Assembly (NCBI RefSeq): GCF_963675165.1
Contig: NC_087391.1
Location: 701,001-765,000, forward strand
From: Halichondria panicea
Taxonomy: Eukaryota; Porifera; Demospongiae; Suberitida; Halichondriidae
Direction of reading: 5' to 3'
Length of the DNA: 64,000 nucleotides
Positions within the stretch are counted from its first letter, which is position 1. Each line of letters opens with the position of its first letter. A program made the translations under genes and the position numbers. The notes beneath the pieces were generated by a model, which saw nothing but the letters and a program-made list of their open reading frames with translations, searched no databases and had not been told where the DNA came from. Positions 2,633-54,564 of this stretch are shown one piece after another.

Positions 2633-3202
2633 ACAGCTAGGACTATAAAAGCTATAATAATTCTGCTGTAAGTGTACATGTATTTCCATTTTCAACATCG
2701 TGCAGAGGGTAAATGACCTTTCGTTGATTCACAATGTACATACATGCATGTGTGTAGTGCATCATTTGTGGGAGAGGGTGAAGATCAAATTACCTTTACA
2801 GCCCTTACAGTGATCATAGCTAGAACAGATGTAATCTCACCAATGGCTATGATAAGTCTAACCCACACATCCTGTATACCTTGTATGGTAACCACAGCAA
2901 TAGAGCATTATATGGTATCAAAAAAGTGACCTCAAAGGAACACAAGATAAGATAGTAAAATGTACTGTATAGAAAATTTCGTGCTCTCTAAAAGCGTTTC
3001 GTTGAATTCGTGGGTGACTGCTTACCAGAAACAGTGCCTTAATATAATCTTTGCACGTTATAGCACATAGTAAAAATCGTGAATTTTGTAGGATAAGAAA
3101 GCGAAAAATTCACGCTATACGGTATGGAATATATAAAGTGACCTCAAGGAACACAGAACACAACAAAAAACACAAAACTAAATAATGTAACATTCTCTAT
3201 AG
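2633..3202. other. Tail-to-tail intergenic, gene 1 / SNX-PARP copy A
   Basis: Non-coding except for a short conserved hydrophobic segment on the minus strand at about 2803-2890 (see findings). It also holds an AT-rich repeat ending in the CGCTATACGGTAT signature seen across the window. Equivalent spacers lie at 14709-15325, 38160-38612 and 49603-50134. Confidence 0.5.
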
Positions 3203-3359
3203 CTACCACTTGTACTTGAAGTTCATTTTGAGCAGGTACTTGATTCTTATCTGGCTCACATCATACAATGAACCTGTGATAAAGATTAACAAACTAGCCG
3301 AATAGATATTATATTAATATACATGTACTCTGTACAAAGTGTTTAACATTCTACACAAC

Positions 3360-3378
3360 ACACACACCCACACAACAC

Positions 3379-3411
<33 letters not shown>

Positions 3412-3455
3412 CACACACACCCACACAACACACACACACACCCACACACACACTG
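3360..3455. repeat. (CA)n microsatellite, copy A
   Basis: CA-rich low-complexity tract in the intron directly before the last PARP exon. The same position carries CA tracts in copies B (15461-15567), C (39520-39590) and D (50285-50355). Confidence 0.85.
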
Positions 3456-3857
3456 ACAATGAATAGGATACTCATTATAGAGTAGTGAGGTATTGTCGAC
3501 GGCTGTGGAGGAGCCCTTGCCCATGGGGATGACCACACCCTCCTCAGTGGTCTTGTGGCCGTCAGTAGTGGGGGCGGTCCGACCCAGACCCTTGGTACTG
3601 TGCTTACCAGCTGGCAGCTTGTCTACATACTTGGAGTGGGTCAGCTCATACCTGCACACACACACACACACACAAGCATTTGAGTATTGATGAAAATATG
3701 AAATTCAAGGTTACTTATCATACACAGTAAGAGAATATGCAGGGTCAGCAGATATTAATAAACAACACACAAAATCCACACAACCATAATGACCAAAGCA
3801 GGCTCAGGGCCCCAAAACAACAAAGAACTATTGTTACACAGGTTGCCAATATTAGTA

Positions 3858-5262
3858 AAACCAGTAGGTTTTACATAGGATTGGCAGTGGGTTTGCCCGT
3901 GTTTAGCAATATTTCAATTATTTTGACTCATGTTCAAACTGTTCTATCTCTGCAGGGAAAGGCCACATCAAGAAACTGGCTGAACAGATAGTTTATTTAG
4001 CCTTTTCTCTCTTTGTATCTCTCATTTCATAATCCATAAACATTTTTACGAATGAATATTTTCATTTTAAAAATTGCACTATTTCGACGTTTCACCGCTC
4101 TTTGTCTGACTGACTAAGTAAGTAAGTAAGTAAGTGAGTAAGTAAGTAAGTTTCTTGCCCAGCATTTACTCCAAGTACAGCCATCTCCAGGACATTCTGC
4201 ACAGGGTTTCCAAACGACTACAACCTGGATTACAAAGCGCTTCTTCAGATTTGCGATTGCTTCCACGAGGCAGATGACCTCTCAGTCTCTATTTCTCTTA
4301 CCTAGACAATTCCGCCATCTTTAATGACTCAGCAATTGCGTTGTGGCCAATAATAATAGATAGGCGTGGCTAATAAACCGTGCGCCTAAAATCAGTGCAG
4401 CAGTGCTTTTCCAGAGCCCGAGGTGTTCCTTTTCTTCACACTGTTCAGCTCTAGCTCCCTTTCTCTGACAGGCATGCTATATGCACTGGCTAGATATCAT
4501 GCTCTTAAAATGGCTGTCATTTAATACTGATTCGCAAATTCAACATAATTATCAAGCAATAAATTATTACTCATTATACTATAATTATTAGTCCAGAGAT
4601 ATTCGAGAAGATATCTGATTAGTCCTGTCTTCTCTTCTTGTACTGCCTCTTGACGTTCCACTTTATGCATGTCATGATACGTAAACTGTACTGAAAAAGA
4701 AAGGGAATCCGACTAGAAAAACATTTGCAATGTGAAAAATTGCTAGGATTGGCCAGGGGAACCACAAAAAAGCGTGGGAACAAGAAATCAGACGAGAGCA
4801 TAACTCCAATCCGTTACAACGTCATGAACATGTACAATACATAGTATATTAAATAATAGACTGTGTTCCAGATCCACCTATCAGCTTCCATCCATCACAT
4901 CATTCCATGCAGTCACCAGTACGGTCCGTGCATGTTACTACGCATGGATGGACTGTGTGTACCTGTGCTCAACACTGCATGTATTAGGAACATCAATTCA
5001 TCACAAATCATCATGATTATGTGCCCCACATTCTAAAATGGATGTATAATAAATATATATAGGGATTGGTCATCACTCCACCAGTAAAAATTGCGTGGCA
5101 TATTGGCTGGGAAAACATGGGAAAACTACCAGTATACATGTGATTGACGTTGTAACGGATTGGAGTTATGCTCTCGTCTGATTTCTTGTTCCCACGCTTT
5201 TTTGTGGTTCCCCTGGCCAATCCTAGCAATTTTTCACATTGCAAATGTTTTTCTAGTCGGAT
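3858..5262. mobile_element. Copy-A-specific intron insertion containing a foldback element
   Basis: Copy B runs straight from the sequence at 3850 to that at 5263, so about 1.4 kb is inserted in copy A. The distal part (4707-5262) is bounded by 118-base inverted arms at 4707-4824 and 5145-5262, starting ATCCGACTAGAAAAACATTT and its reverse complement. The spacer of about 320 bases encodes nothing recognisable. The proximal part holds a (TAAG)n tract at 4113-4151. No transposase is seen, so this is a non-autonomous or nested insertion. Confidence 0.72.
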
Positions 5263-8200
5263 CTAATCAAGATCCTAAAGAAAACCATGGAAACCAACTA
5301 AGTCATCAGTACACAGTGGTTCAAGTATTGGGAGATGGTACAGTAATTATAAAATTACTCTCTTTACTTCCCTAACCCCACCCACTGAAGCACAACCCTC
5401 ACACCCTACACACCACTCACATGTCTCCGAGGGCAACCTCACAGAGGAGCATGAGTCCCTCGTTGTCAGAGCGAGAGGTGCTACAGTAATCGGCACTCTT
5501 GGAGACCATGTCTGCAAAGTACACCCCCTTCCCAAACATGTAGCCAGTCACAGGCGCCTCTGGTGGAGCTATTCGAAGACCCTGGGACAAAATGAACACA
5601 TAATTATACCATAAAAACAATGAGAGTCAATACTGAAACATAGAAGCCATCACAGTGATTGAAGAGTATAATGTAGACACTCACCAAATACTGTGCATGC
5701 ATACACAGTAATACCACAACATACCTGGGATAGTATTCCCACAAAGTTGGTCTTCCTGGAGCCGTGCCAGAGCAGCTGTCTGTTGTGGAGCTTTGAGAAT
5801 GGTTTGTATTTCTTCCCCTCTCCTTCTCTGTCCACTTTGAACACCTCCAGCACCTCCAGTGAGTACTGAGAGTGGGTGACCGCGTGAGTGTTGGACACGT
5901 ACTCCTGCAGCATTGAGAACTCATCAGAGCCCTTGGGCAGCACCTGACGTGGTGGGGGGGTAATAAAGGAAGTAAAAACGATGAACTTATTAATAATTGT
6001 TTGTTAGTGGGTGATTTTTGTATGGAGGAAATTTTCGTACATTTCGTATTAAAGAGTAGCATATACGAATTATTCTACTGCAATAGATTTAACATCACTA
6101 TCCTGAGCTTTACGAATATTTAAAATACATATTTAAATGGGTAACACATACAAAAATGACCCGCTATACGGTACTGAATAACAGCCAGCTTGCATGTTTA
6201 CGTTCACCTTTGTGTATACATATAAACAAACAGCAAAAACATAATTAATTTTAGCATACCTGCAAAAAGAAGTCGACAGGTTTGTTGGCTGGAAACAGGA
6301 GTGACATCTTGAGCTGCTCATAATGCAGGTCCAATGGGTCCTTCCCTCCACTCACACCATCCTCCTGTTTCAGTAGCGAGTAGGCCACCTCAATCTCCAG
6401 TAGATTATCCAACATTTGTGTCTTTATCTTTATAACCTCCTCTGAGTTCAGTGGGGGTGGTTTCGTCATGCCAAAGTCATGTGGTACTAGAGTGTAGAAT
6501 CTGTTAGTACAGTCGAGGATTTTGCTCGGATTCTGAGTCCCAACTATCTCTCGTTGTAGCTCAGAGAGGACAGAATATGCACTCTCTATCTGTCGCCGTG
6601 ACAACTTTCCCAAAGGCATCTTCTTTATATCAATCTGTGGCAAACAGAGTGTGCAGTTATACTTGAATTGCTGTTGCACAATTCATATAAAACCAGATAA
6701 TCTTTATAAGACAATCCCTAGCTAGCTAAGATATGGCTTGTGCATGTACCTATACGAGATCTTGTATGGGGAAATCGAGTGGCTAGTGCACTCTCTTATA
6801 TTAAAGACCCACCTCAAACTCCAGCATAGCTTTCTTCATGCTCTCCACATCAAATATCATTCGAATGAGATCTTGTATCTCAGGGGCCAGTGTGGACTTT
6901 GAACCAGGGGCAATTCCAAGCTGTTGCCCAGTGTCCTCATCACCACCATAGTCTATCTCCAGGGGGTAGAACTTGCTAGGCCTCTTAACAAAGCTCTCTT
7001 TACTGGTGCCCCATGAATTGCCTGTCTTGTCTTGGTAGAGGAGCTCAAAGTGCTTTTTGGCAGCAGGTTTGGAGGCTCCAAAACTCTGTGAAGGATAAAC
7101 AACAGTTATTTTCTAGTTTTCCATCGAGAAACAAATTTGCAGTAAGTATGCTGTTCTAACCTAGTATACGTATTATTTACAAAGAAAATACCTTGAAAAT
7201 ATGTGGGTTAAAATCAAAAGTCTATTATAGACAAAATACCGAGAAATTATGGCGCATTCCAAATTTTAGATTTGAGCGCATACCATCTGAATCGTCTCTT
7301 TCTAAGGTTGAAATTGTACCACCAGAACTCTAGTTCTCTTAACCAATTAATTACATGACTTCACCTCTTCTCCTGGTGGTTTGGGGGTCTCTGATGATGG
7401 CTGCTTCTTGACTGTCACTGGAGACATCTTGGAACTCGACTGACCAGAGGACTTGAGTGCACCTCGGGTCAACGTGGCCACACGTTTTAGAGGGTTGAGG
7501 AGAGTGTTCACCTGTGAAGGTGGGGAGTGAGTGTGTGTGAAGTGTGGAGGGTGGGGAGTGTGTGTGTGTGTGTGAAGTGTGGAGGGTGGGGAGTGTGTGT
7601 ATGTGTGTGGAGGTGGGGAGTGAGTATGTGTGTGTGTGGGGGTGTGTGTGGAGGGTGTGATACTTACCATTCTCTTTAGCTCGGTGCTCTGTCGTTCGTA
7701 CTCTCCTTCTGACAGGAACAAGATGACCTGACCCAACACGTGGAGGTGATCTGATAGGAATTCCTCTGAGGTGATAGTTTTCAGGTAGCCCTCCAGCTGA
7801 ATTCGTCTCACGTCCAACCGCTGGGGGTCCAATTTGTGGAACGAGGGAAGAGTGGGTAGCACGAGATTAGCAGGGAAGTTATCAATCTGGGAGGAGGGAG
7901 AAAATTGATATTTTGGAATTCAAGAGCTTAAGATGAAAATGCAGCTAAAGTCTGTACCAAAGAGCTTACTAGTATTGCAACCATGAAGGGGACGTAATGA
8001 TAAATTGAGAGCTGTGTGTTTGTATGCTTTTTGTATAGTACATCAATGTCCCCCGCCCCCTCCTTTCGGCTACTACCCACCAGTGCCCTGAGTGAGAGGT
8101 GGAGGTCGTGGAAGCCTCTATAGCGACGATTAATGATCCACTTCTCAGTGACAGAGACATGGCTGTGTTTGCAGGAGACGTGACGTGAAACACACGTTAC

Positions 8201-8598
8201 TGTAGCTTACACTGAGTACTGCTTTAGCAGTGGCCAGAACTGATTCCAGAGCACTTTTCTTCAGTCGATCATAATCTAGAAACAGAGTTACAGACAATAA
8301 AACAAGAGCATTACAATTTTAGACCAGACCCAACAAAAGGAAGTAATCAACATAACACACCTGTGACTCCAGTCTTCTGCAGGTGTGAGATGTGAGAGTT
8401 GACGTTGTACCCGAGTGATCGTACCTCGGTCTCGTTGGCCCCTCACTCAGAGCAGCCATGAAACTGTCAGTGTTCAGAGAGCTCTCCTTGCACTGGACAC
8501 GGGGAACACATACAAGTGAGAGGAACAACATTGGGAGGATATTGAAAACAATTTTATATAAAGTTAACGGACATAGTAAATAATATTCTGAAACACGT

Positions 8599-8817
8599 AC
8601 CGTACGGGTGGAAAATTTCGAGGGTGTAAATTTTCGTGCAATTCAATATTCTGTCTTATTTGGAAAATTTCGCGGGTAGTAAATTTCGTGGAGTTAGGGT
8701 GTGGCACTATCTCGCATGCGTATACGAAGCCTTTCAAGGGTTTTAATTTTCGTGTTCTGCAGCCACCCACGAAAAACGCGAAATTAAAAACACCTTGAAA
8801 TTTTCTACCCGTACGGT
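8599..8817. mobile_element. MITE-like element with CCGTACGGGT ends
   Basis: The ends ACCGTACGGGTGGAAAATTT and its near reverse complement bound about 219 bases in a copy A intron. The interior has TTTCGTGG/CCACGAAA words. It is absent from the other copies at this position, so it is a copy-specific insertion. Confidence 0.65.
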
Positions 8818-9005
8818 ATACCATTCCCTCACCATTGATATGAAGGTGGCGTTGATGTTGTCAGGTAGAGCTAGTGTCTTGAGCAATGGCGTCCATACCT
8901 TCCAGACCAACACATCGGTGAGGAGGGCCTGGAGGGACGGAGAAGAGAACTCGTCCTCTGGGAGCACAATACACAGCAGCAGCTCAGAGAGACGGTACAG
9001 GTAGG

Positions 9006-9054
<49 letters not shown>

Positions 9055-9080
9055 TGTGGGTGGGTGTGTGTGTGTGGTAG
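9006..9080. repeat. (TG)n microsatellite, copy A
   Basis: A tract of about 70 bases of TG units next to the acceptor of PXA exon 2. Copies B, C and F have TG tracts at the same place (20713-20790, 44819-44855, 62035-62120), so the tract predates the duplications and supplies the polypyrimidine-like region on the minus strand. Confidence 0.85.
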
Positions 9081-10008
9081 GTTTGACAAATTGGATGAGA
9101 AAAAGACAATTCTTTCTTCACTTCAATAATACACTTTACAAATCCATGCTAGCAGGAGTAGATTAATACTCGTGATACAGCTGTACAATGCTGATACCTA
9201 TCCTGGCTTCCCTGTCACACCAGACGGCCCTCCACGGGTCCTCCCCACTCTCACACTTGAAGAACTCTGTCTCCACCGCCTCGTTCCATATTGCTGCACT
9301 TTGACCTGTGACCACACCCACTGATGCAGTCCCACATGCCACCTTGTATGCCCTCAGGTGATCCATAAAATCATTGATGAGTGTCTCTATGAAGAAGGCC
9401 AAGTAGTCGACCTCTCTGCCAGCCGCGGCTACTTCTTGAATCACATTGTGGGCCAGTTCTAGGCCTTCTTGGGAACACACTGGGTCGGGACTGACGTGGG
9501 TGTGATACCAGCTCTCGAAAAGGTCTCGTAGTCCGAGGGACAACAGCTGTTAGGGTGTGTGGGTGGAGAGGATAATAGCGTTAGGTGTGTGTTTAGGGGA
9601 AGGGGTGGTTGTGTGTATGGTGTGAGGTTGTGATCACCTTTTCTAGTTCTTCATCAATGCTCTTCACTCCAGTGAGTTGACTGTTGAACTGGAGGGGGCG
9701 TGGCTCAACGGAGGGTGCCAACACCTGGGGAGGTAGCAAACAATGAGACAATGACAGCAGCGGGATTGACGAGGTTACCTTGTGACAGCCGACTTGTGTC
9801 CATTGAGAACTGCTCTCTGTCCACACCTTCCTCACATGATAGGCCTGCTGCCAACTGACATACAGTGCAACAGAGAGGAACCTGAAGTCAAACAGTTGTA
9901 CTGACTGTATAGACTAGTGTAGTATATCGAGTGTGTGTGCATGGTGATGCATTCTTACCCTAGAATGAAGGACAAGACACAGAGAACCAGGAGTAGGCCA
10001 CCATCCAT

Positions 10009-10171
10009 TGCACTGCATCACTGATCAGTGCACTCTTTATCTTTTATCTATGCTCAGAGATCTGTGCTGAGTCAGCAGAGAATGACATGCATGTGACATA
10101 AAGACCAAGACATTGTGAATGTACATGTAAATCACATGTACATGTACAACCACAGAGGTGTGCAATTAAAT
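10009..10171. promoter_or_regulatory. Divergent promoter, SNX/PARP copy A and gene 2
   Basis: The start codons of the two genes are 163 bases apart and point away from each other. The spacer holds a perfect 13-base palindrome TGCTGAGTCAGCA (10065-10077), the textbook T-MARE/AP-1-like site for Maf/CNC bZIP factors. Just beyond it is a quasi-palindrome ATGACATGCATGTGACAT (10082-10099) that is conserved in all four head-to-head spacers. No clear TATA box is seen. Confidence 0.6.
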
Positions 10172-13100
10172 ATGGCAGAACAAAGTCTTCTGCATCTTGC
10201 TTGTAAGAATGGTCACTATCAGACTGTGGAAACTCTCCTGAACCATGAATACGATGTGAACGAAACAGATGATGAAGGATTCACTCCTCTCATGTTGGCA
10301 TGTTTATATGGCCACACTGACATTGCAATACTGCTGCTGAGTAGAGGAGCACAAGTGAACATGCAAGCGAATAATGGGGGGTCTGCTCTGATGCTAGCAA
10401 GTCAAACTGGACATAGCGATGTCGTTAAAATATTGATAGAAAAAGGAGCACAAGTGAACATGCAAGCGAATGGTGGGTTCTCTGCTCTGATGGGAGCAAG
10501 TCAAAATGGACATAGAGATGTCGTCAAAGTATTGATAGAAAAAGGAGCACAAGTGAACATGCAAAAGAATGATGAATGGTGTGCTCTGATGCTAGCAAGT
10601 CAAAATGGACATAGCGATGTCGTTAAAATATTGATAGAAAACGGAGCACAAGTGAACATGCAAAAAAATAATGGGGGGTCTGCTCTGATGCTAGCAAGTC
10701 AAACTGGACATAGCGATGTCGTTAAAATATTGATAGAAAAAGGAGCACAAGTGAACATGCAAGATAATAATGTGTGGTCTGCTCTGATGATAGCAAGTTA
10801 TAAGGGACATAACGATGTCGTCAAAGTATGATAGAAAAAGGAGCACAAGTGAACATGCAATCGAATAATTGGTGTTCTGCTCTGATACTAGCAAGTGCAA
10901 ATGGACATAGCGATGTCGTTAAAATATTGATAGAAAAAGGAGCACAAGTGAACATGCAAGCGAATGGTGGGTTCTCTGCTCTGATGGCAGCAAGTCAAAA
11001 TGGACGTAGCGATGTCGTCAAAGTATTGATAGAAAAAGGAGCACAAATGAACATGCAAGATAATGATGGGTGGTCTGCTCTGATGCTAGCAAGTCAAAAT
11101 GGACATAGCGATGTCGTTAAAATATTGATAGAAAACGGAGCACAAGTGAACATGCAAAAAAATAATGGGGGGTCTGCTCTGATGCTAGCAAGTCAAACTG
11201 GACATAGCGATGTCGTTAAAATATTGATAGAAAAAGGAGCACAAGTGAACATGCAAGATAATAATGGGTGGTCTGCTCTGATGATAGCAAGTTATAAGGG
11301 ACATAACGATGTCGTCAAAGTATTGATAGAAAAAGGAGCACAAGTGAACATGCAATCGAATAATTGGTGTTCTGCTCTGATACTAGCAAGTGCAAATGGA
11401 CATAGCGATGTCGTTAAAATATTGATAGAAAAAGGAGCACAAGTGAACATGCAAGCGAATGGTGGGTTCTCTGCTCTGATGGCAGCAAGTCAAAATGGAC
11501 GTAGCGATGTCGTCAAAGTATTGATAGAAAAAGGAGCACAAATGAACATGCAAAAGAATGATGAATGGTGTGCTCTGATGCTAGCAAGTCAAAATGGACA
11601 TAGCGATGTCGTTAAAATATTGATAGAAAACGGAGCACAAGTGAACATGCAAACAAATAATGGGGGGTCTGCTCTGATGCTAGCAAGTCAAACTGGACAT
11701 AGCGATGTCGTTAAAATATTGATAGAAAACGGAGCACAAGTGAACATGCAAACAAATAATGGGGGGTCTGCTCTGATGCTAGCAAGTCAAACTGGACATA
11801 GCGATGTTGTCAAGGTATTGATAGAAAAAGGAGCACAAGTGAACATGCAAGATAATAATGGGTGGTCTGCTCTGATGATAGCAAGTCAAAATGGACATAG
11901 CGATGTTGTCAAAGTATTGATAGAAAAAGGAGCACAAGTGAACATGCAAGATAATAATGGGCGGTCTGCTCTGATGATAGCAAGTCATAATGGACATAGC
12001 GATGTTGTCAAAGTTTTGATAGAAAAAGGAGCACAAGTGAACATGCAAAAGAATGATAAATGGTCTGCTCTGATGCTAGCAAGTCTTAATGGACATAGCG
12101 ATGTCGTCAAAGTATTGATAGAAAAAGGAGCACAAGTGAACATGCAAGATAATGATGGGTGGTCTGCTCTGATGATAGCAAGTGAAAATGGACATAGCGA
12201 TGTTGTCAAAGTATTGATAGAAAAAGGAGCACAAGTGAACATGCAAGATAATAATGGGCGGTCTGCTCTGATGATAGCAAGTCATAATGGACATAGCAAT
12301 GTCGTCAAAGTATTGATAGAAAAAGGAGCACAAGTGAACATGCAAGATAATAATGGGGGGTCTGCTCTGATGATAGCAAGTAAAAATGGACATAGCGATG
12401 TTGTCAAAGTATTGATAGAAAAAGGAGCACAAGTGAACATGCAAAAGAATGATAAATGGTCTGCTCTGATGCTAGCAAGTCTTAATGGACATAGCGATGT
12501 CGTCAAAGTATTGATAGAAAAAGGAGCACAAGTGAACATGCAAGATAATGATGGGTGGTCTGCTCTGATGCTAACGTGTTATAATGGGAGAAAGGAAGTT
12601 GTTCATATATTGCTTGACAATCACGCTGATACAAATATTCGTGATAGCAGTGGTAAAAATGCACTTATTGTGGCAACTAAAGCAGGGCATGCTGATATAG
12701 TTGAGTTGTTACTACCCTACGAGCACAGAGACACTACCTCAAGCAGCAGTACATCCACAGAAGAACCTCCAGCAAAGCGGGTAAAGATTGAAAAAGGTGA
12801 TTCAATATAACACTTTTAGTATAGCCACAATCACCGTTACTAATTCCAACTCAAACGTTTTTTAGGACAAGATGATGTTTCACTGGTTAAAGAGGTAGCA
12901 GCAATCACCAACGCAGTACAGGAGAAAGATGTAGATGCTCTTCCTACAAAAATTATGCGACCTCAAACAGTTACTGAAGGTATAATTACAGCAAGCAAAA
13001 TGGTTAATATTATAATTAGTATAATTAATAGTATGGCTAAGAGTGCAATATGGGATTAATAGCACGAGTAACAAGCAACGGCAAGGATACTAATTGCACG

Positions 13101-14708
13101 AGGCGCAGCAGAGTGCTATTAACCTTGCCAGTGCTTGTTATGAGTGCCTTATTGCACGAGTAGCCATACTATTGATTGTTAATCGTTTGTGATGTTTTAA
13201 GGACATTTTTAGCTGCAGTTTCAGTAAAAAATTAGCCGCGGCCGTTATTTGAACGTGCGGTCGTCAAGGCAGTAATTGCACGTCGTTAATGACGACGTGC
13301 AATTACTGATACGCGATTAATCACTGTACGAATCACAGTGAATAATAGGACAACATGCAATTATACTAATAATGCATGACTGTGCAATGCTGGACATATA
13401 TGAATTGTACGGCTGATCGACCCCGAACACTAATTAATGTTCTGCTTCTACAGGACCACCCGTTAATCGAGTCACTCTCCAAGAACTAGTAAGGCGACAC
13501 AGTCTGACTGACGAGCAACTCAACAGTGAAATAGTGGGGTCTGATATTCCCTACGTGGCCAAATATTTTGATGGGGTGATAATCTATTCGAGTGCAATGG
13601 GACTGACTCCTTCTGAACTAGCCGATGTGAAGGATTTGTCCTATAGGAAAGGAATTCAAGTAGCCATGACTGAATGCTTGATTCTCTGGAAAAGACACGA
13701 TCCTGTTACAGCAACTCACAAAGCTCTACTGGAGCTGTTACTGAAATTAAGCAAAGAAGAAATAGCTGATCAAATCTGTCAGCACTTGACTAAATGTGAG
13801 TATACAATCATACATGATAATGTACACAATTCTATTATGTTTTTACAGGTAAACCATCTTCATCTACTGCAGTAGCTAACAAGGAGTATATATCGGATGA
13901 CCTGGTTCTGTTCAAAGATAAGCACATCGGAAGTGGTGCATTCGGTGCAGTATTCAGAGGAGAACTGAATGGACAGCCTTGTGCCCTCAAATTGCTACAT
14001 GCAGTCGCCAGTGAAATACGAACAAGGATACCAACAGCGAGCTCTGCCTCAACAGATTCTACTGAGAGGTTTCGTAAAGAATGTGAATTCTTTGAGTCAT
14101 TTCAACACCCAAACATTGTCCGTCACCTAGCAACCAAGAAACATCTTGAAACTAATCAGCTTGTCCTTGCTCTAGAACTGATGGACTGCAACCTGCGACA
14201 ATACTTCACTCCTTCTCAGCCTGACAAAGAACCCGTCAAGCTCTCACTAGCAATCCAGACCAGCCTCTGTCATGACATAGCCTCGGCACTCGAGTACATC
14301 CACTCACGAGGGGTGGTACACAGGGACCTCTGTGGAGAGAACATTCTGCTGTCCTGTGGAGGGGAAACCCCCGTTGCTAAAGTGTGCGATTTCGGAATGT
14401 CTAAAATCACCAAGAGTGATACTCAAAGTGTATCACTGCAAGTATTCGCTCACAAAGGATTCATGCCGCCAGAAGCTACTGACATGGAGTCATCGTCCTA
14501 TAACTCGAAATTTGACATCTTCTCATTTGGTGCTCTAATGGTTCAAATTGTTCGCCATCTTCCCACCATTAAAGACGGAAAATATCGTAAATATGAATTG
14601 AAACAGATTGAAGATGCTCACCCCATCAAGGAACTTATAATAGATTGTTTGAATGAGAACAGAGACGATCGACCATTAGCTGCTCAGCTAAAGAGGAGAC
14701 TGGTATAG
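10172..14708 (+). CDS. Ankyrin array - Death domain - protein kinase, gene 2 (frameshift in array)
   Basis: Exons 10172-12796, 12866-12979, 13454-13795 and 13849-14708, all joined in phase 1, give about 1313 residues if one missing base is allowed for. The start MAEQSLLHLACKNG matches gene 3. Exon 1 holds about 25 ankyrin repeats arranged partly as five-repeat blocks. The repeat at about 10829 reads AAAGTATGATAG where all others read AAAGTATTGATAG, a one-base loss that stops translation at 10831. Exon 3 encodes a Death domain of a second type (VTLQELVRRHSLTDEQL, IIYSSAMGLTPSELADV). Exon 4 is a kinase with GSGAFGAVF, CALKLL, HRDLCGEN and CDFGMSK, all key residues kept. Either the copy is a young pseudogene or the missing base is a consensus error. 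Confidence 0.78.
13027..13173. mobile_element. Hairpin MITE in gene 2 intron
   Basis: The ends AATAGTATGGCTA and TAGCCATACTATT are inverted copies, with further internal pairing (TTGCACGAGG and similar). The same element lies in the same intron of gene 3 at about 23572-23718, so it was inserted before those two genes separated. A second small palindrome, TGCACGTCGTTAATGACGAC, lies at about 13277. Confidence 0.6.
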
Positions 14709-15325
14709 TGTTAAGACTGTCATTGTGTCTATATGGACTGATTATTATTTTAGTCATGCTATTTTATTTTTACTATTAATATTCCACTTTTCGTTGATTC
14801 ACAATGTACATGCATGCATGTGTGTAGTGCATCATTTGTGGGAGAGGGTGAAGATCAAATTACCTTTACAGCCCTTACAGTGATCATAGCTAGAACAGAT
14901 GTAGTCTCACCAATGGCTATGATAAGTCTAACCCACACATTCTTTATACCTTGTAGGGTAACCACGTACAACAGCAATAGAGCATTATATGGTATAAAAA
15001 AAGTGACCTCAAAGGAAACAAGTAATAAAATGACTGTACATGTATACATAGAGCAAAAAGATAAATTTCGTGCTCTCTAAAAGCGTTTCGTTGAATTCGT
15101 GGCCTGGGTGGTGACTGCTTACCAGAAACAATGCCTTTAATATAATCCTTGCACGTTGTAGCACATAGCAATTCTAATTAAAGAAAAATCGTGTATTTCG
15201 TAGGATGAGAAAAGCGAAAAATTCACGCTATACGGTATCAAATATATAAAGTGACCTCAAGGGAACACAGAACACAACAAAAACACAAACTAAATGTAAC
15301 ACAAGTCCAACAGTTCTCTAGCTAT
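14709..15325. other. Tail-to-tail intergenic, gene 2 / copy B
   Basis: No gene is recognised. It contains the copy B version of the conserved minus-strand segment (about 14868-14958) and the AT-rich repeat ending in CGCTATACGGTAT. Confidence 0.5.
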
Positions 15326-15482
15326 CACTTGTACTTGAAGTTCATTTTGAGCAGGCTCGTGATTCTTATCTGACTCACATCATACAATGAACCTGTGATA
15401 AAAAAGTTATTAATTAAGTTCAAAAAACTGTACTCGGTACAAAGTGTTTAACATCCTACACACACACCCACGCACACACACC

Positions 15483-15535
<53 letters not shown>

Positions 15536-16618
15536 ACGCACACACACCCACCCACCCACACACACACTGACAATGATTAGGATACTCATTATAGAGTAGT
15601 GAGGTATTGTCGACGGCTGTGGAGGAGCCCTTGCCCATGGGGATGACCACACCCTCCTCAGTGGTCTTGTGGCCGTCAGTAGTGGGGGCGGTCCGACCCA
15701 GACCCTTGGTACTGTGCTTACCAGCTGGCAGCTTGTCTACATACTTGGAGTGGGTCAGCTCATACCTGCACACACACACACACACAAGCATTTGAGTATA
15801 ATATGAAATTCAAGGTTACTTATCACACAGTAAGAGAATATGCAGGGTCAGCAGATATTAATAAACAACACACAAAATCCACACAACCATAATGACCACA
15901 GCAGGCTCAGGGTCCCAAAACAACAAAGAACTATTGTTACACAGGTTGCCAATATCTAATCAACATCCTAAAGAAAACCATGGAAACCAACTAAGTCATC
16001 AGTACACAGTAGTTTAAGTATTGGGAGATGGTACAGTAATTATGAAATTACTCTCTTTATTTCTCTAACCCCCACCCACTAAAGCATAACCCTCACACCC
16101 TACACACCACTCACATGTCTCCGAGGGCAACCTCACAGAGGAGCATGAGTCCCTCGTTGTCAGAGCGAGAGGTGCTACAGTAATTGGCACTCTTGGAGAC
16201 CATGTCTGCAAAGTACACCCCCTTCCCAAACATGTAGCCAGTCACAGGCGCCTCTGGTGGAGCTATTCGAAGACCCTGGGACAAATTGAACAGTGAGTAA
16301 AAATTTACAAGTCATCATTGTGAAGACTTCAACTGCATACATGTACATGTAGACATTGACACACACCAAATGTTATAACTGCATGTGCATACACAACATA
16401 CCTGAGATAGTATTCCCACAAAGTTGGTCTTCCTGGAGCCGTGCCAGAGCAGCTGTCTGTTGTGGAGCTTTGAGAATGGTTTGTATTTCTTCTCCTCCCC
16501 TTCTCTGTCCACTTTGAACACCTCCAGCACCTCCAGTGAGTACTGAGAGTGGGTGACCGCATGAGTGTTGGACACGTACTCCTGCAGCATTGAGAACTCA
16601 TCAGAGCCCTTGGGCAGT

Positions 16619-16620
<2 letters not shown>

Positions 16621-16679
<59 letters not shown>

Positions 16680-16700
16680 GTGTGTGTGTGTGTGGGGGGG
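16621..16700. repeat. (TG)n microsatellite, copy B
   Basis: About 57 bases of TG units, then a TG/G-rich tail, directly upstream of the first transferase exon. Homologous tracts lie at 40618-40680, 51776-51812, 54572-54650 and 57404-57481. It is the site where the copy E and F junctions occur. Confidence 0.9.
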
Positions 16701-16854
16701 GAGGTAACATTGTTATTACAACCACAGGTGCACAGGATATGAATATTATATATTCATGCTACTGAACAACATGTCTATGTTTATGCCTTGTTGACACAAG
16801 TTATTATAGATTCTGTGACATGATAAGGTACAGTACACAGAGATTACAATCAAT

Positions 16855-16986
16855 GCAGAGGTGGTCCAACAGGCACGATGCAGCTCAAGCTGATTAATTA
16901 TCCGCCCACATCGTATGTTTTTGCTGAGTGTAATCAGAGGCTAGTTGCTTGAGCTGCACCGCGCCTGTCTGTCGGACCACCTCTGC
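16855..16986. mobile_element. 132-base hairpin MITE next to PARP regulatory exon, copy B
   Basis: The element begins GCAGAGGTGGTCC and ends GGACCACCTCTGC, with long internal pairing (AGCTCAAGC... GCTTGAGCTGCA). It is flanked by AATCAAT direct repeats, a probable 7-base target duplication. Orthologous insertions are at 51979-52106, 54810-54941 and 57641-57772, but not in copies A or C. Confidence 0.8.
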
Positions 16987-17874
16987 AATCAATGAATGTA
17001 CACATACTCACATCCATCTTGGTCTTGAGCTGCTCATAATGCAGGTCCAATGGATCCTTCCCTCCACTCACACCATCCTCCTGTTTCAGTAGCGAGTAGG
17101 CCACCTCAATCTCCAATAGATTATCCAACATTTGTGTCTTTATCTTTATAACCTCCTCTGAGTTCAGTGGGGGTGGTTTCGTCATGCCAAAGTCATGTGG
17201 TACTAGAGTGTAGAATTTGTTAGTATAGTCGAGGATTTTGCTCGGATTCTGAGTCCCAACAATCTCTCGTTGTAGCTCAGAAAGGACAGAATATGCACTC
17301 TCTATCTGTCGCCGTGACAACTTGCCCAAAGGCATCTTCTTTATATCAATCTGTAGCAAACAGAGTGTACAGAATTGCAGTTCATATAAAACTAGCTTGT
17401 AATAGGACAATCCCTAGCTAAGACATGGCTTGTGCATGTGTACCTATACAAGATCTTGTATGGGGACATCGAGGGCTAGTTTATACTCTTTTAAGACCCA
17501 CCTCAAACTCGAGCATAGCTTTCTTCATGCTCTCCACATCAAATATCATTCGAATGAGATCTTGTATCTCAGGGGCCAGTGTGGACTTTGAACCAGGAGC
17601 AATTCCAAGCTGTTGCCCAGTGTCCTCATCACCACCATAGTCTATCTCCAGGGGGTAGAACTTGCTAGGCCTCTTAACAAAGCTCTCTTTACTGGTGCCC
17701 CATGAATTGCCTGTCTTGTCTTGGTACAGGAATTCAAAGTGCTTCTTGGCAGCAGGTTTGGAGGCTCCAAAACTCTGTGAAGGATAAACAAACAGTTATT
17801 CTCTAAAAAGTTGTCCATCAAAAAACAAATTTGCAGTAAGTATGCTGTCCTAAACCTTAAACAAAATATTGCTT

Positions 17875-18037
17875 ACCGTATAGTGGGTAATTTTCGTGGG
17901 CAAGCTGACTTCCACGAAATTTAAACGCAGGCGTGGAATGCAGTGCAGGCAACAAGACTAAACGAAATTTGTACTCACGAAAACCACCGTTTTCCAGATC
18001 AACGAATTTACCCTACAAAAATAACCCGCTATACGGT
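17875..18037. mobile_element. MITE with ACCGTATAGYGGGTAA ends, copy B
   Basis: Inverted ends (ACCGTATAGTGGGTAATTTT and AACCCGCTATACGGT) bound about 163 bases between the WGR exon and the next PARP exon. Copies C (42427-42610), D (52988-53156), E (55827-55987) and F (58657-58819) carry it at the same site. Copy A, which lacks the adjacent WGR exon, lacks it too. Confidence 0.75.
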
Positions 18038-18648
18038 ATACTGAATCTTAAAGCTACTTTCTTCCCCCCTCCCCTCTCAGTGGTTTAGCTGACCTCTGTC
18101 TTTGAGCCTCCTATGGCGGTCCCCACACGACCCCACGACCTGAACACATAGTAGTTCTTGCTGGAGTCTCCTTCGAGCAGCTGCAGCTTGTAGTACGAGT
18201 TAGTGCCTCTTATGACATCGACCAATCCAAGTACAGCATTCCAGACCACACCCCCACCTCCAGTACGTTGTGTGACTCCTCCAGCTCTGAATCAGGGTCC
18301 ACTGCAGCACCACCCTTTACCATCACCTTGACCTTGCTGGGACCTGGGTGGAGGGAGGGGTGTGTCTACAGGTACGTATATATACAGTCCGGAGGCATTA
18401 ATAACATAAAGTTATGTACATCTCAAATTAGGTGGTCTGTACATACAACAAAGACCAAAGGAAAGTGATTTACAAAGAAAATACCTTGAAAATATATCAA
18501 AAGTCTATTATGGACAAATACCGAGAAATTATGGCGCATTCCAAACTTGAGATTTGAGCGCATACCATCTGAATCGGCTCTTTCTAAGGTTGAAATTGGA
18601 CCACCAGAACTCTAGTTATCTAAACCAATTAATTACATGACTTCACCT

Positions 18649-21600
18649 CTTCTCCTGGTGGTTTGGGTGTCTCTGATGATGGCTGCTTCTTGACTGTCAC
18701 TGGAGACATCTTGGAACTCGACTGACCAGAGGACTTGAGTGCACCTCGGGTCAACGTGGCCACACGTTTTAGAGGGAGGAGAGTGTTTGCCTGTGAGGGT
18801 GGGGAGTGTGTGTGTGTGTATGTGGAGGGTGGGGAGTGAGTGGGTGTGTGTGGAGGGTTGGGAGTGTGTGTGTGTGTGTGTGGGTGTGTGTGGGTGTGGA
18901 GAGTGAGTGGAGGTGGGGAGTGTGTGTGTGGAGGGTGGGGAGTGAGTGTGTTTGATTGAAGAAGGTATTGGGGTGGGCAAGGATTGTCAGTCGCACACCC
19001 TCCCAATCTTACGGAAAGCTTTTAAAAAGTTTTTTATTTACGGTGTTGGAATCCAGTCTTCACTGCTAGCAGAGGATTACTAATGTATGGAATGTACACT
19101 ATTTTGATGGGCATCAATTACTAGGAAAATGTAAAATCTTCATAATAATAGTAAACAAAAAAGAACAAAAGAGCAGACAACATAAAACCATACAGCAATA
19201 GAAAAAGCAAACAGATGCCCGACCTTGAGAGCCGAGAATGATGGGTTAAAGAGTCTTTAACAGTGCACCAACACTCCCCATTCATCTGTTGCATTCAGAG
19301 TCACACTAGTACTGAATAATTATTGTAAGTTATTTACATTGAGGTCATGCTGATATAAAGAGGGTGTGATACTTACCATTCTCTTTAGCTCGGTGCTCTG
19401 TCGTTTGTACTCTCCTTCTGGCAGGAACAAGATGACCTGACCCAACACGTGGAGGTGATCTGATAGGAATTCCTCTGAGGTGATAGTTTTGAGGTAGCCC
19501 TCCAGCTGAATTCGTCTCACGTCCAACCGCTGGGGGTCCAATTTGTGGAACGAGGGAAGAGTGGGTAGCACGAGATTAGCAGGGAAGTTATCAATCTGGG
19601 AGGAGGGAGAAAATTGATACCCAAGAGCTTACTAGTAATGGCAATGCAGCTACAGTCTGTACCAAAGAGCCTACTAGTATTGACAATCAACTACCAAGGG
19701 GACCTATGATAAATTGAGAGCTGTGTGTTTGTATGCTTTTTGTAGTACACCAATGTCCCCGCCCCCTCCTTTCGGCTACTACCCACCTGTGCCCTGAGTG
19801 AGAGGTGGAGGTCGTGGAAGTCTCTATAGCGACGATTAATGATCCACTTCTCAGTGACAGAGACATGGCTGTGTTTGCAGGAGACGTTGACGTGAAATAC
19901 ACAATGCTTGGTGGTACCCTCGTTCAGAATGTCATAGTCGGGAATGGCGGCCGAGAGGGCAATGAGACTATTACTGGACACATTTGCAGGGACACTCTTG
20001 GCCTGTGGAGTGGGTGGGGTGTGTGGAGTGAGTGGGAGTGTGGAGTGGGTGGGAGGGTGGAGGGTGGTTGGCAAGGAGAGGCATATATACACTTATGGAA
20101 TGAACAAACAGTTACTGTAGCTTACACTGAGTACTGCTTTGTGGCCAGAACTGATTCCAGAGCACTTTTCTTCAGTCGATCATAATCTAGAAACAGAGTT
20201 ACAGACAATAAAACAAGAGCATTACAATTTTAGACGAGACCCAACAAAAGGAAGTAATCAACATAACACACCTGTGACTCCAGTCTTCTGCAGGTGTGAG
20301 ATGTGAGAGTTGACGTTGTACCTGAACGATCGTACCTCTGTCTCGTTGGCCCCCTCACTCAGAGCAGCCATGAAACTGTCAGTGTTCAGAGAGCTCTCCT
20401 TGCACTGGACACGGGGGAACGCATACAAGTGAGAGGAACAACAATGGGAGGATATTAAAAATACTTTTATGATCAAAGCCATTCAGCATGCATGAAGTTA
20501 ACGGACATAGTTCTGAAACACGTACACCATTCTCTCACCATTGATATGAAGGTGGCGTTGATGTTGTCTGGTAGAGCTAGTGTCTTGAGCAATGGCGTCC
20601 AGACCTTCCAGACCAACACATCGGTGAGGAGGGCCTGGAGGGACAGAGAAGGGAACTCGTCCTCTGGGAGCACAATACACAGCAGCAGCTCAGAGAGACG
20701 GTACAGGTAGGCTGTGTGTGTGTGTGTGGGTGTGTGTGTGTGTGTGTGGGTGTGTGTGTGTGTGTGTGTGTGCGTGCGTGCGTGCGTGGTAGGTTTAACA
20801 ACATTGGCAACAATACACGTTCTATTTTCTATTGAAAATCATCAAAATCGCACCATCCACACTACAAGAGATGGGAATATTGTTAATGGATATTCTAGAA
20901 CATTAATAAGAACTACACAGTGATACTAGGTACAATGCTCGTACCTATCCTGGCTTCCCTGTCACAGCAGACGGCCCTCCATGAGTCCTCCCCACTCTCA
21001 CATTTGAAGAACTCTGTCTCCACCGCCTCGTTCCATATTGCTGCACTTTGACCTGTGACCACACCCACTGATGCAGTCACACATGCCACCTTGTACGCCT
21101 TCATGATCCATAAAATCATTCATGAGTGTCTCTATGAAGAAGGCCAGATAGTCGACCTCTCTGCCAGCCGCAACTACTTATTGAATCACGTTTATGGGCG
21201 AGTTCTAGGGCTTCTTGGGAACACACTGGGTCGGGACTGACATGGGTGTGATACCAGCTCTCGAAAAGGTCTCATAGTCCGAGGGACAACAGCTGTTAGG
21301 GTGTGTGGGTGGAGAGGATAATAGCTTAATTTAGGTGTGTGTTTAGGGGAGGGGGTGGTTGTGTGTGCTGTGTGAGGTTGTGATCACCTTTTCTAGTTCT
21401 TCATCAATGCTCCTCACTCCAGTGAGTTGACTGTTGAACTGGAGGGGGCGTGGCTCAACGGAGGGTGCCAACACCTGGGGAGGTAGCAAACAATGAGACA
21501 ATGACAGCAGCGGGATTGACGAGATTACCTTGTGACAGCCGACTTGTGTCCATTGAGGGCTGCTCTCTGTCCACACTTTCCTCACATGACGGACCTGCTG

Positions 21601-21756
21601 CCAACTGACGTACAGTGCAACAGAGAGGAACCTGAAGTCAAACAGTTGTACTGACTGTATAGACTAGTGTAGTATATAGTGTGTGTGCATGGTGATGCAT
21701 TCTTACCCTAGAATGAAGGACAACACACAGAGAACCAGGAGTAGGCCACCATCCAT
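18649..21756 (-). pseudogene. PXA-PX sorting nexin (SNX19-like), copy B, frameshifted
   Basis: It has the same exon series as copy A, from the start codon at 21756 to the basic linker exon at about 18649-18790. The first PX exon (about 19787-20006) is complete here: SVPANVSSNSLIALSAAIPD, then KWIINRRYRDFHDLHL. PX second half 19377-19595, PXA part 2 about 20539-20712. PXA part 1 (about 20943-21296) carries a one-base gain near 21190 (CATAAACGTG versus CACAATGTG in copy A) and a two-base loss near 21105, so the frame is broken. About 410 bases absent from copies A and C are inserted at about 18960-19365. Confidence 0.68.
18960..19365. other. Shared intron insertion in copies B, D, E and F
   Basis: About 410 bases lie between the linker exon and the PX second-half exon. 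Copies A and C have only about 150 bases of TG-rich sequence there. Homologues are at about 54000-54405, 56833-57240 and 59635-60050. No coding potential or inverted ends are evident. It marks B, D, E and F as one duplication lineage. Confidence 0.6.
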
Positions 21757-22186
21757 TGCACTGTATCACTGATCAGTGCACTCTTTATCTTTTATCTATG
21801 CTCAGAGATCTGTGCTAATACATGTACATGCTGAGTCAGCAGAGAATGACATGCATGTGACATATTATGTCCTGAAGTTTTTCTAATTGCATGCGGGAGG
21901 GCGGCTTTTCTCATTATGTCATTATCAATTTCACCTTATGAATTTCATTATTTTGCAAATGAATATCATTATCACACTATTTTGGACCATTATGCGCATG
22001 CGTAGTAGAAATAATGGGATAGAAATCCAATAATGAGATAGAAATCCAAGAATAAAATCTGATGCGGGCGGTGGACCAGAAACCAGAGTATCACTTGGAG
22101 TGGCCTAAAGACATTGTGAATGTACATGTAAATCACATGTATCACAGTATATGTACAACCACAGAGCTAGAGGTGTGCAATTAAAT
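21757..22186. promoter_or_regulatory. Divergent promoter, copy B and gene 3
   Basis: It carries the same motifs as the copy A spacer: perfect TGCTGAGTCAGCA at 21829-21841 and ATGACATGCATGTGACAT at 21846-21863. About 240 bases rich in CATTAT words have been inserted between these motifs and the gene 3 start, enlarging the spacer to 430 bases. Confidence 0.6.
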
Positions 22187-24400
22187 ATGGCAGAACAAAG
22201 TCTTCTGCATCTTGCTTGTAAGAATGGACACTATCAGACTGTGGAAACTCTCCTGAACCATGAATACGATGTGAACGGAACAGATGATAAAGGATTCACT
22301 CCTCTCATGTGGGCATGTTTATATGGTCACACTGACATTGCAATACTGCTGCTGAGTAGAGGAGCACAAGTGAACATGCAAATGAATATTGGTGGGTTTG
22401 CTCTGATGGTAGCAAGTCAATATGGACATAGCGATGTCGTTAAAGTATTGATAGAAAACGGAGCACAAGTGAACATGCAAGATAATAATGGGCAGTTTGC
22501 TCTGATTCTAGCGAGTCAAAATGGACATAGCGATGTCGTTAAAATATTGATAGAAAACGGAGCACAAGTGAACATGCAAGATAATAATGGGCAGTTTGCT
22601 CTGATTCTAGCAAGTCTTAATGGACATAGCGATGTCGTCAAAGTATTGATAGAAAAAGGAGCACAAGTAAACATGCAAAATAATAATGGGTGGTCTGCTC
22701 TGATGCTAGCAAGTCAAAATGGACATAGTGACGTCATTAAAGTATTGATAGAAAAAGGAGCACAAGTGAACATGCAAGATAATAATGGGGGGTATGCTCT
22801 GATGATAGCAAGTCAAAATGGACATAGCGATGTTGTCAAAGTATTGATAGAAAAAGGAGCACAAGTGAACATGCAAGATAATAATGGGGGGTCTGCTCTG
22901 ATGATAGCAAGTCTTAATGGACATAGCGATGTCGTCAAAGTATTGATAGAAAAAGGAGCACAAGTGAACATGCAAATGAATAATGGGGGGTCTGCTCTGA
23001 TGATAGCAAGTCAAAATGGACATAGCGATGTTGTCAAAGTATTGATAGAAAAAGGAGCACAAGTGAACATGCAAACGAATGATGGGTGGTCTGCTCTGAT
23101 GGTAGCGTGTTATAATAAGAGAAAGGAAGTTGTTCAGATATTGCTTGACAATCACGCTGATACAAATATTCGTGATAGCAGTGGTAAAAATGCACTTATT
23201 GTGGCAACTGTAGCAGGGCATGCTGATATAGTTGAGTTGTTACTACCCTACGAGCACAGAGACACTACCTCAAGCAGCAGTACATCCACAGAAGAACCTC
23301 CAGCAAATCGGGTAAAGATTGAAAAAGGTGATTCAATATAACACTTTTAGTATAGCCACAATCACCGTTACTAATTCCAACTCAAACGTTTTTTAGGACA
23401 AGATGATGTTTCACTGGTTAAAGAGGTAGCAGCAATCACCAACGCAGTACAGGAGAAAGATGTAGATGCTCTTCCTACAAAAATTATGCGACCTCAAACA
23501 GTTACTGAAGGTATAATTACAGCAAGCAAAATGGTTAATATTATAATTACCTCAATATAATTAGTATAATTAATAGTATGGCTAAGAGTGCAATATGGGA
23601 TTAATAGCACGAGTAACAAGCAATGGCAAGGATACTAATTGCACGAGGCGCAGCAGAGTGCTATTAACCTTGCCAGTGCTTGTTATGAGTGCCTTATTGC
23701 ACGAGTAGCCATACTATTGATTGTTAATCGTTTGTGATGTTTTAAGGACATTTTTAGCTGCAGTTTCAGTAAAAAAATTAGCCGTGGCCGTTATTTGAAC
23801 GTGCGGTCGTCAAGGCAGTAATTGCACGTCGTTAATGACGACATGCAATTACTGATACGCGATTAATCACTGTACGAATCACAGTGAATAATAGGACAAC
23901 ATGCAATTATACTAATAATGCATGACTGTGCAATGCTGGACATATATGAATTGTACGGCTGATCGACCCCGAACACTAATTAATGTTCTGCTTCTACAGG
24001 ACCACCCGTTAATCGAGTCACTCTCCAAGAACTAGTAAGGCGACACAGTCTGACTGACGAGCAACTCAACAGTGAAATAGTGGAGTCTGATATTCCCTAC
24101 GTGGCCAAATATTTTGATGGGGTGATAATCTATTCGAGTGCAATGGGACTGACTCCTGCTGAATTAGCCGATGTGAAGGATTTGTCCTATAGAAAAGGAA
24201 TTCAAGTAGCCATGACTGAATGCTTGATTCTCTGGAAAAGACACGATCCTGTTACAGCAACTCACAAAGTTCTACTGGAGCTGTTACTGAAATTAAGAAA
24301 AGAGGAAGTAGCTGATCAAATCTGTCAGCATTTGACTAAATGTGAGTATACAATCATAATTATGCCTCGGTGCGCATATGCGCAAGCGAGGTATGTGGTA

Positions 24401-24431
<31 letters not shown>

Positions 24432-43219: not shown

Positions 43220-44819
43220 CCTCTTCTCCTGGTGGTTTGGGTGTCTCTGATGATGGCTGCTTCTTGACTGTCACTGGAGACATCTTGGCACTCGACTGGC
43301 CAGAGGACTTGAGTGCACCTCGGGTCAACGTGGCCACAAGTTTTAGAGGGTTGAGGAGAGTGTTCGCCTGTGAGGGTGGGGAGTGTGTGTGTGTGAAGTG
43401 TGGAGGGTGGGGAGTGTGTGTGTGTGTGAAGTATGGAGGGTGGGGAGTGTGTGTATGTGTGTGGAGGGCGTGATACTTACCATTCTCTTTAGCTCGGTGC
43501 TCTGTCGTTCGTACTCTCCTTCTGGCAGGAACAAGATGACCTGACCCAACACGTGGAGGTGATCTGATAGGAATTCCTCTGAGGTGATAGTTTTGAGGTA
43601 GCCCTCCAGCTGAATTCGTCTCACGTCCAACCGCTGGGGGTCCAATTTGTGGAACGAGGGAAGAGTGGGTAGCACGAGATTAGCCGGGAAATTATCAATC
43701 TGGGAGGAGGGAGAAAATTGCTATTTTGGAATTCAAGAGCTTAAGTAATATAATGAAAATGCAGCTAAAGTCTGTACCAAAGAGCTTACTAGTATTGCAA
43801 CCATGAAGGGGACGTAATGATAAATTGAGAGCTGTGTGTTTGTATGCTTTTTGTATAGTACACCAATGTCCCCCGCCCCCTCCTTTCGGCTACTACCCAC
43901 CTGTGCCCTGAGTGAGAGGTGGAGGTCGTGGAAGTCTCTATAGCGACGATTAATGACCTACTTCTCAGTGACAGAGACATGGCTGTGTTTGCAGGAGACG
44001 TTGACGTGAAACACACAATGCTTGGTGGTACCCTCATTCAGAATGTCATAGTCGGGAATGGCGGCCGAGAGGGCAATGAGACTATCACTGGACACATTCG
44101 CAGGGACACTCTTGGCCTATGGAGTGGGTGGGGTGTGTGGAGTGGGTGGGAGTGTAGAGGGTGGTTGGCAAGGAGAGGCATATATACACTTATGGAATGA
44201 ACAAACAGTTACTGTAGCTTACACTGAGTACTGCTTTAGCAGTGGCCAGAACTGATTCCAGAGCACTTTTCTTCAGTCGATCATAATCTAGAAACAGAGT
44301 TACAGACAAAAAAACAAGAGCATTACAATTTTAAATGAGACCCAACAAAAGGAAGTAATCAACATAACACACCTGTGACTCCAGTCTTCTGCAGGTGTGA
44401 GATGTGAGAGTTGACGTTGTACCTGAGTGATCGTACCTCGGTCTCGTTGGCCACCTCACTCAGAGCAGCCATGAAACTGTCAGTGTTCAGAGAGCTCTCC
44501 TTGCACTGGACATGGGGGAACACATACAAGTGAGAGGAACAACAATTGGAGGATATTGAAAATACTTTTATGATCAAAGCCATTCAGCATGCATGAAGTT
44601 AACGGACATAGTTCTGAAACATGTACACCATTCTCTTACCATTGATATGAAGGTGGCGTTGATGTTGTCTGGTAGAGCTAGTGTCTTGAGCAATGGCGTC
44701 CAGACCTTCCAGACCAACACATCGGTGAGGAGGGCCTGGAGAGACGGAGAAGAGAACTCGTCCTCTGGGAGCACAATGCACAGCAGCAGCTCAGAGAGAC
44801 GGTACTGTTACAGGTACGC

Positions 44820-50134: not shown

Positions 50135-50288
50135 CTACCACTTGTACTTGAAGTTCATTTTGAGCAGGCACTTGACTCTTATCTGGCTCACATTATACAA
50201 TGAACCTGTGATAAAGATTAACAAACTAGCCGATTAGATATTATATTAATATACATGTAGTCTGTACAAAGTGTTTAACATCCTACAC

Positions 50289-50335
<47 letters not shown>

Positions 50336-51769: not shown

Positions 51770-51813
<44 letters not shown>

Positions 51814-54556: not shown

Positions 54557-54564
54557 TTTGGGCA

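What the first reader, a model, noticed from the sequence alone, without database searches (positions are those of the whole stretch)
3203..21756. Membrane-anchored PXA-PX sorting nexin joined to the C-terminal half of PARP1
In every copy the SNX19-like exons (anchor, PXA, PX) are followed on the same strand, about 0.3 kb later, by WGR, regulatory and transferase exons of PARP1 type. No zinc-finger or BRCT exon, stop-bearing SNX terminal exon or Nexin_C lies between them. PARP1 normally starts with DNA-binding fingers, and SNX19 normally ends with Nexin_C, so each half lacks what the other replaces. A fusion would put poly-ADP-ribosylation on an endomembrane, a combination I do not know from any described protein. 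Caveat: the linker exon ends in phase 0 (GAG/GTGAAG), while the best WGR acceptor (CCACCCAG/GT) needs phase 1; only weaker acceptors a few bases on restore frame.
Basis: partly seen in the sequence, partly recalled or inferred. Interest (0 to 1): 0.9.

Follow-up and report, generated by a model that had tools for sequence, protein, structure and literature searches.

The report
Broken SNX–PARP1 chimeras from tandem duplication
A stretch of an animal chromosome holding the end of one gene and the start of another was copied head-to-tail several times, which stitched the front of a sorting-nexin gene onto the back of the DNA-repair enzyme gene PARP1, but every stitched copy found is broken and both original genes survive intact at the two ends of the array.

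Summary
The DNA observation is right; the fusion-protein reading is not. Five SNX::PARP1 loci (four in the window, one just left of it) share one junction: SNX-like exons S1-S10, a 0.28-0.31 kb intron with a dispersed repeat, then PARP1 WGR, regulatory and catalytic exons. Both parents are intact at opposite ends of the array: full PARP1 to the right, full SNX with Nexin_C to the left. A segment from mid-PARP1 to mid-SNX was thus duplicated in tandem, and the chimeras are its junctions. None can encode the proposed protein: in 5 of 5 the spliced frame stops in the SNX half (codons 87-303), and the SNX donor (phase 0) and first WGR acceptor (phase 1) do not match. Four of five lose the catalytic domain's end through a 2-nt deletion; the fifth has frame-breaking indels before it. 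One oddity remains: amino-acid changes among copies are fewer than neutral, so decay is recent, or copies came from functional templates, or the chimera once worked.

The parts
3201..10010 (-). F4: SNX5'::PARP1-3' chimeric locus. First WGR exon (W1) absent, 1-nt deletion in S6, front of PX exon S8 missing, regulatory exon end altered, 2-nt deletion in last exon
7086..7364 (-). F4 junction intron (S10 donor to W2 acceptor), with the dispersed repeat inside
8359..8494 (-). F4 exon S6 (with 2 flanking bases each side) with 1-nt deletion; the frame stops at codon 303 in S7
15320..21758 (-). F3: SNX5'::PARP1-3' chimeric locus; nonsense codons 87 and 118 in PXA exon S4 (plus ins1 and del2), 4-nt deletion in S7, 1-nt deletion in W1, 2-nt deletion in last exon
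18344..18646 (-). F3 junction intron between S10 and W1; phase 0 donor, phase 1 acceptor
20943..21294 (-). F3 exon S4 (PXA; with 2 flanking bases each side) carrying the first stop codons
38608..45822 (-). F2: chimeric locus; nonsense codons 190 and 373, 1-nt deletion in W1, parental W2 acceptor sequence deleted, 8-nt deletion in W2, 8-nt insertion in regulatory exon; two last exons
42916..43220 (-). F2 junction intron
50133..63059 (-). F1: chimeric locus; PXA exon S4 ins1 and del7 with first stop at codon 123, S5 split by about 0.63 kb insert, nonsense codon 302, 1-nt insertion in S8, 1-nt insertion in C1, 2-nt deletion in last exon
52130..59578 (-). three tandem copies of the S10-W1-W2-R cassette inside F1 (S10 at 59578, 56747, 53913; the second and third preceded by a partial S9)
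22109..25853 (+). one of the ankyrin / Death-like / protein-kinase genes that lie between chimeric loci and are part of the duplicated unit
   Evidence: the Death match is below Pfam's cut-off

Best explanation
The loci are chimeric pseudogenes made by tandem segmental duplication. Ancestrally one PARP1 gene and one SNX19-like gene lay on the same strand with an ankyrin-kinase gene between them (inferred from today's order). A duplication whose breakpoints fell in the PARP1 intron before the first WGR exon and in the SNX intron before the Nexin_C exon (shown: one shared junction) put the SNX 5' part next to the PARP1 3' part; a dispersed repeat at the junction suggests ectopic recombination between repeat copies (inferred). 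Later unequal crossing-over amplified the unit to five chimeric loci, leaving full PARP1 at one end and full SNX at the other (layout shown, process inferred). The junction joins phase 0 to phase 1, so the first transcripts would have ended in a short out-of-frame tail after the PX and linker part, unless W1 was skipped (inferred from sequence). The copies have gathered stops and frameshifts in both halves (shown). The ankyrin-kinase genes carried in the unit may be what kept the array (inferred, weak).
For: Intact parents: PARP1 15 exons, 1013 aa, at C15:775108-768636 (Pfam domains, match to solved PARP1 9mi8 over residues 1-1012); SNX 11 exons, 626 aa, at C15:681120-677950. Similarity of chimeras to parental SNX ends at C15:678507 in 7 of 8 junctions (678508 in the eighth), and to parental PARP1 runs on from C15:772603 in 7 of 7 junctions with W1; F4, which lacks W1, resumes at 771439. 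The junction intron holds a dispersed repeat: 41 matches listed (40 of 228 candidates scored), 8 of them these junctions; the PARP1 parent intron holds the same family (41 matches listed including itself, 40 of 657 candidates scored). First stop in the SNX half in 5 of 5 loci; stop-making substitutions, not only indels, in 4 of 5 loci (F1, F2, F3, F5). Nonsense changes are 8 of 111 singletons in the chimeras (7%) against about 3.4% expected under neutrality, so stops are not visibly being removed; numbers are small. W1 has indels in 5 of 7 copies.
Against: SNX-half exons diverge less than introns (0.023-0.034 against 0.066-0.132 per site; not done for the PARP half), and amino-acid changes among copies are fewer than neutral (SNX half 55 N: 50 S, neutral ratio 2.44; PARP W2-C4 24 N: 37 S, neutral ratio 2.58, neutral ratios with an assumed transition bias of 4). 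A chimera dead since birth would not show this. It needs recent decay, or copying from functional alleles of the parents shortly before decay. In the SNX parent intron only a 23-nt piece resembling the repeat was found and a 75-nt query from it matched only itself, so the repeat-mediated origin is only partly supported.
Confidence: 0.88

Rival explanations
1. A working fusion protein: SNX anchor-PXA-PX joined to PARP1 helical and transferase domains, made by skipping the first WGR exon (S10 to W2 is phase 0 to 0).
For: S10-W2 is in frame on parental sequence; amino-acid changes in W2+R are rare among copies (8 N: 23 S) while W1, which would be skipped, looks relaxed (8 N: 5 S; Fisher p 0.04, comparison chosen after seeing the data; against all of W2-C4 p 0.22); W1 has indels in 5 of 7 copies.
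Against: 5 of 5 loci stop in the SNX half, 87 to 303 codons in, under both splice models; the last exon has a 2-nt deletion in 4 of 5 loci, and F2 has 8-nt indels in W2 and R. Part of W1's excess sits at one short hotspot.
Confidence: 0.05
2. Two separate neighbouring genes rather than a fusion: a truncated SNX ending in the junction intron and a short PARP1-like gene with its own start.
For: W2-C3 of F3 has no indel and no nonsense codon.
Against: Stops break each SNX half, and 4 of 5 PARP halves lose the end of the catalytic domain, the fifth having upstream frameshifts. No start site or promoter was tested.
Confidence: 0.05
3. Assembly artefact (mis-joined repeats, or polishing errors making false frameshifts).
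For: One lesion (F4 S6) is a one-base loss in a run of G, seen on comparing.
Against: Copies differ from parents and from each other by several percent at silent sites, share junctions, and carry stop-making substitutions; both parents read open over all exons.
Confidence: 0.02

Closest known systems
Chimeric gene structures created by tandem duplication (Drosophila yakuba, PMC5460883; abstract and section list seen)
   Same: Tandem duplication creates chimeric gene structures (abstract); that breakpoints in two genes join the 5' end of one to the 3' end of the other is recalled.
   Different: Here the chimera was amplified to five loci with the array and all five are broken; no expression data.
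PARP1
   Same: The 3' halves are copies of this genome's PARP1 WGR, regulatory and catalytic exons; the parent has the PARP1 domain set.
   Different: No zinc fingers, PADR1 or BRCT, and the frames are broken.
SNX19-type sorting nexin (PXA-PX-Nexin_C without RGS; the abstract start of PMC7956473 in the listing says SNX19 is the one without RGS)
   Same: The 5' halves copy this genome's SNX gene: short hydrophobic N-terminus, PXA, PX.
   Different: No Nexin_C and stops within the half. The SNX19 label rests on the absence of an RGS match; no tree was built.

Membership tests
Functional fusion gene | Open reading frame across the junction | tested here: not met
   0 of 5 loci under either splice model
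Functional fusion gene | Matching splice phase at the junction intron | tested here: not met
   Phase 0 donor, phase 1 W1 acceptor in the 7 junctions with W1; phase 0/0 only if W1 is skipped or, as in F4, absent
Functional fusion gene | Spliced transcript across the junction | not testable with these tools
   No transcript data available
Chimera at a tandem-duplication junction | Complete parent genes at opposite ends, chimeras at internal junctions, same strand order | tested here: met
Chimera at a tandem-duplication junction | One shared breakpoint in all copies | tested here: met
   (F4 has a further deletion on the PARP1 side)
Chimera at a tandem-duplication junction | Repeat homology at both parental breakpoints (one possible mechanism) | tested here: inconclusive
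   Repeat in the PARP1 intron, only a 23-nt resemblance in the SNX intron
Pseudogene | Inactivating lesions | tested here: met
   5 of 5 loci
Pseudogene | Neutral ratio of amino-acid to silent changes | tested here: not met
   Fewer amino-acid changes than neutral in both halves; fits recent loss, recent copying from functional templates, or past function

The most novel reading that the evidence does not exclude
The chimera worked until recently, or still does in other individuals, as a membrane-anchored PXA-PX protein carrying the PARP1 helical and transferase domains, made by skipping the relaxed first WGR exon; this assembly shows its decayed copies.
Probability: 0.06. Interest if true: 0.75.

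Novelty: new member of a known kind. Interest (0 to 1): 0.22.

Why it matters
It shows how a repeated chimera read from raw sequence can look like a new enzyme when it is the scar of a tandem duplication, with both parents present to prove it. The array is a compact natural example of chimera birth and decay; the unexpected constraint on its exons asks when the copies lost function, or whether the parents keep rewriting them. If a working version existed, it would place poly-ADP-ribosylation on an endomembrane.

Tried and rejected
Considered and rejected: independent fusion events (junctions are the same); a frame saved by W1 indels (W1 is 251, 250 or 247 bases, never the +1 or -2 needed); an intact locus outside the window (F5 stops at codon 189). 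The comparison of W1 with W2+R was chosen after seeing the counts and is weak. Two results sit awkwardly: the SNX parent's own singletons are 6 N: 4 S, not clearly constrained, and F2's PARP-half singletons are 2 N: 8 S although F2 is broken.

Paper searches: one search failed on a parenthesis. One search (tandem duplication, chimeric gene and others, at least 4 of 5 terms) held 53 papers, 12 listed; it gave PMC5460883. One search (sponge, PARP1, sorting nexin) gave one paper on circular RNAs in breast cancer lines. One search (sorting nexin, PARP catalytic domain, PXA domain, WGR domain, at least two) held 23 papers, 8 listed, none joining the two by its title; the other 15 were not seen. In PMC2964712 the words sorting nexin, PX domain, transmembrane and sponge do not occur (word search only). 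One search (sponge, ankyrin, death domain and others) held 3 papers, not followed. No other animal genome could be searched, so presence of the array in relatives is untested. No tool named the organism; 'animal, sponge-like' is my guess from recall.

Full report
What is there. The window is C15:701001-765000 of a 131-Mb, 39-contig genome. Family searches of that genome placed PARP catalytic exons at six sites on C15 between 692k and 770k, all on the minus strand (which lists 56 matches in the whole genome), zf-PARP on this chromosome only at C15:774.4-775.1k (3 matches in all, one of them on C3), and Nexin_C on this chromosome only at C15:678.0-678.2k (3 matches in all, the others on C2 and C3). 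I fetched the flanks, joined them to the window and modelled both end genes exon by exon.

The parents. At the right end a complete PARP1 of 15 exons and 1013 aa runs from C15:775108 to 768636 without an internal stop; Pfam gives two zf-PARP stretches, PADR1, BRCT, WGR, PARP_reg and PARP, and residues 1-1012 align with a solved PARP1 (9mi8). At the left end a complete sorting nexin of 11 exons and 626 aa runs from C15:681120 to 677950, with PXA, PX and Nexin_C and no RGS match. Both are on the minus strand, and the introns of both models have GT-AG ends.

The chimeras. Exon mapping found five loci with SNX exons S1-S10 followed by PARP1 exons: F1 window 63059-50133, F2 45822-38608, F3 21758-15320, F4 10010-3201, and F5 left of the window at C15:700867-691967. 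F1 and F5 repeat the S10-W1-W2-R cassette three and two times, giving 8 junctions. Similarity to the SNX parent ends at C15:678507 in 7 of 8 (678508 in one), and to the PARP1 parent runs on from C15:772603 in all 7 that keep W1; F4 resumes at 771439. Between lies a stretch related to a dispersed repeat, whose family is also in the PARP1 parent intron; in the SNX parent intron only a 23-nt piece matches (22 of 23), and a 75-nt query from there matched only itself. The order along the chromosome, full PARP1, then chimeras alternating with ankyrin-kinase genes, then full SNX, is what a tandem duplication with breakpoints in the two introns gives. I take that origin as well supported, and recombination between repeat copies as likely but not shown.

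Can they make a fusion protein? The SNX parent joins S10 to its Nexin_C exon in phase 0; the PARP1 parent joins BRCT to W1 in phase 1. S10 spliced to W1 therefore reads six residues and a stop on parental sequence; S10 spliced to W2 is in frame. But on each locus's own sequence the frame ends in the SNX half in 5 of 5: F1 codon 123, F2 190, F3 87, F4 303, F5 189, whatever happens at the junction. Lesions include stop-making substitutions, small indels, an insert of about 0.63 kb in S5 of F1, and loss of the front of the PX exon in F4. The PARP halves are broken too: a 2-nt deletion in the last exon in F1, F3, F4 and F5, and 8-nt indels in W2 and R of F2.

What does not fit simply. Pairwise dN/dS is 0.05-0.42 over the 30 comparisons of copies and parents, SNX-half exons diverge 2.3 to 5.5 times less than the introns (the PARP half was not measured), and amino-acid changes among copies are below the neutral share in both halves. 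In the SNX half the copies' singletons look more relaxed (42 N: 26 S) than shared variants (6 N: 20 S); in the PARP half they are 23 N: 20 S against 7 N: 13 S, with F2 at 2 N: 8 S; the parents' own singletons are 6 N: 4 S (SNX) and 1 N: 8 S (PARP1). Nonsense changes are 8 of 111 singletons, not below the neutral share. Sites were treated as independent, and exchange between copies was not modelled. I read this as recent loss of function, or recent copying from functional parental alleles; a formerly working chimera remains possible. W1 looks more relaxed than W2+R (p 0.04, post hoc) but not than W2-C4 as a whole (p 0.22).

Comparison with what is known. Chimeric structures from tandem duplication are described in Drosophila (PMC5460883, abstract and section list seen). 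Searches found no paper on a sorting nexin joined to a PARP, within a library that lacks most subscription journals and with 8 of 23 hits seen.

Verdict.

Noticed in passing
window 1-2632, 10097-14708, 22109-25853, 34144-38159, 46833-49602, 63176-64000 (+): Repeated genes or gene pieces with ankyrin repeats (99-nt units), a sub-threshold Death-domain match where tested (two of them) and a protein kinase (five tested) alternate with the chimeras and form part of the amplified unit.
   Followed up: partly
window 27337-29565 (+): 743-aa open frame with only a sub-threshold Roc-like match (E 0.14) and a P-loop-like stretch (motif recalled); may be a Roc-type GTPase.
   Followed up: partly
window 52130-59578 (-): Three copies, about 2.8 kb apart, of the S10-W1-W2-R cassette inside F1; F5 (left of the window) has two.
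   Followed up: partly
W1 exons, exon position 89 (e.g. window 18345-18092, 42917-42664): The same short AGG-rich spot of the first WGR exon carries deletions of 1 or 4 nt or clustered changes in 6 of 7 copies: an indel hotspot or exchange between copies.
   Followed up: partly
genome C13:2005-2008k and C16:516-519.5k: Two further places with WGR and PARP catalytic matches, perhaps PARP2/3-type genes.
   Followed up: no
window 39133-38608 (-): F2 has two copies of the PARP1 last exon, both without the 2-nt deletion seen in the other four loci.
   Followed up: no
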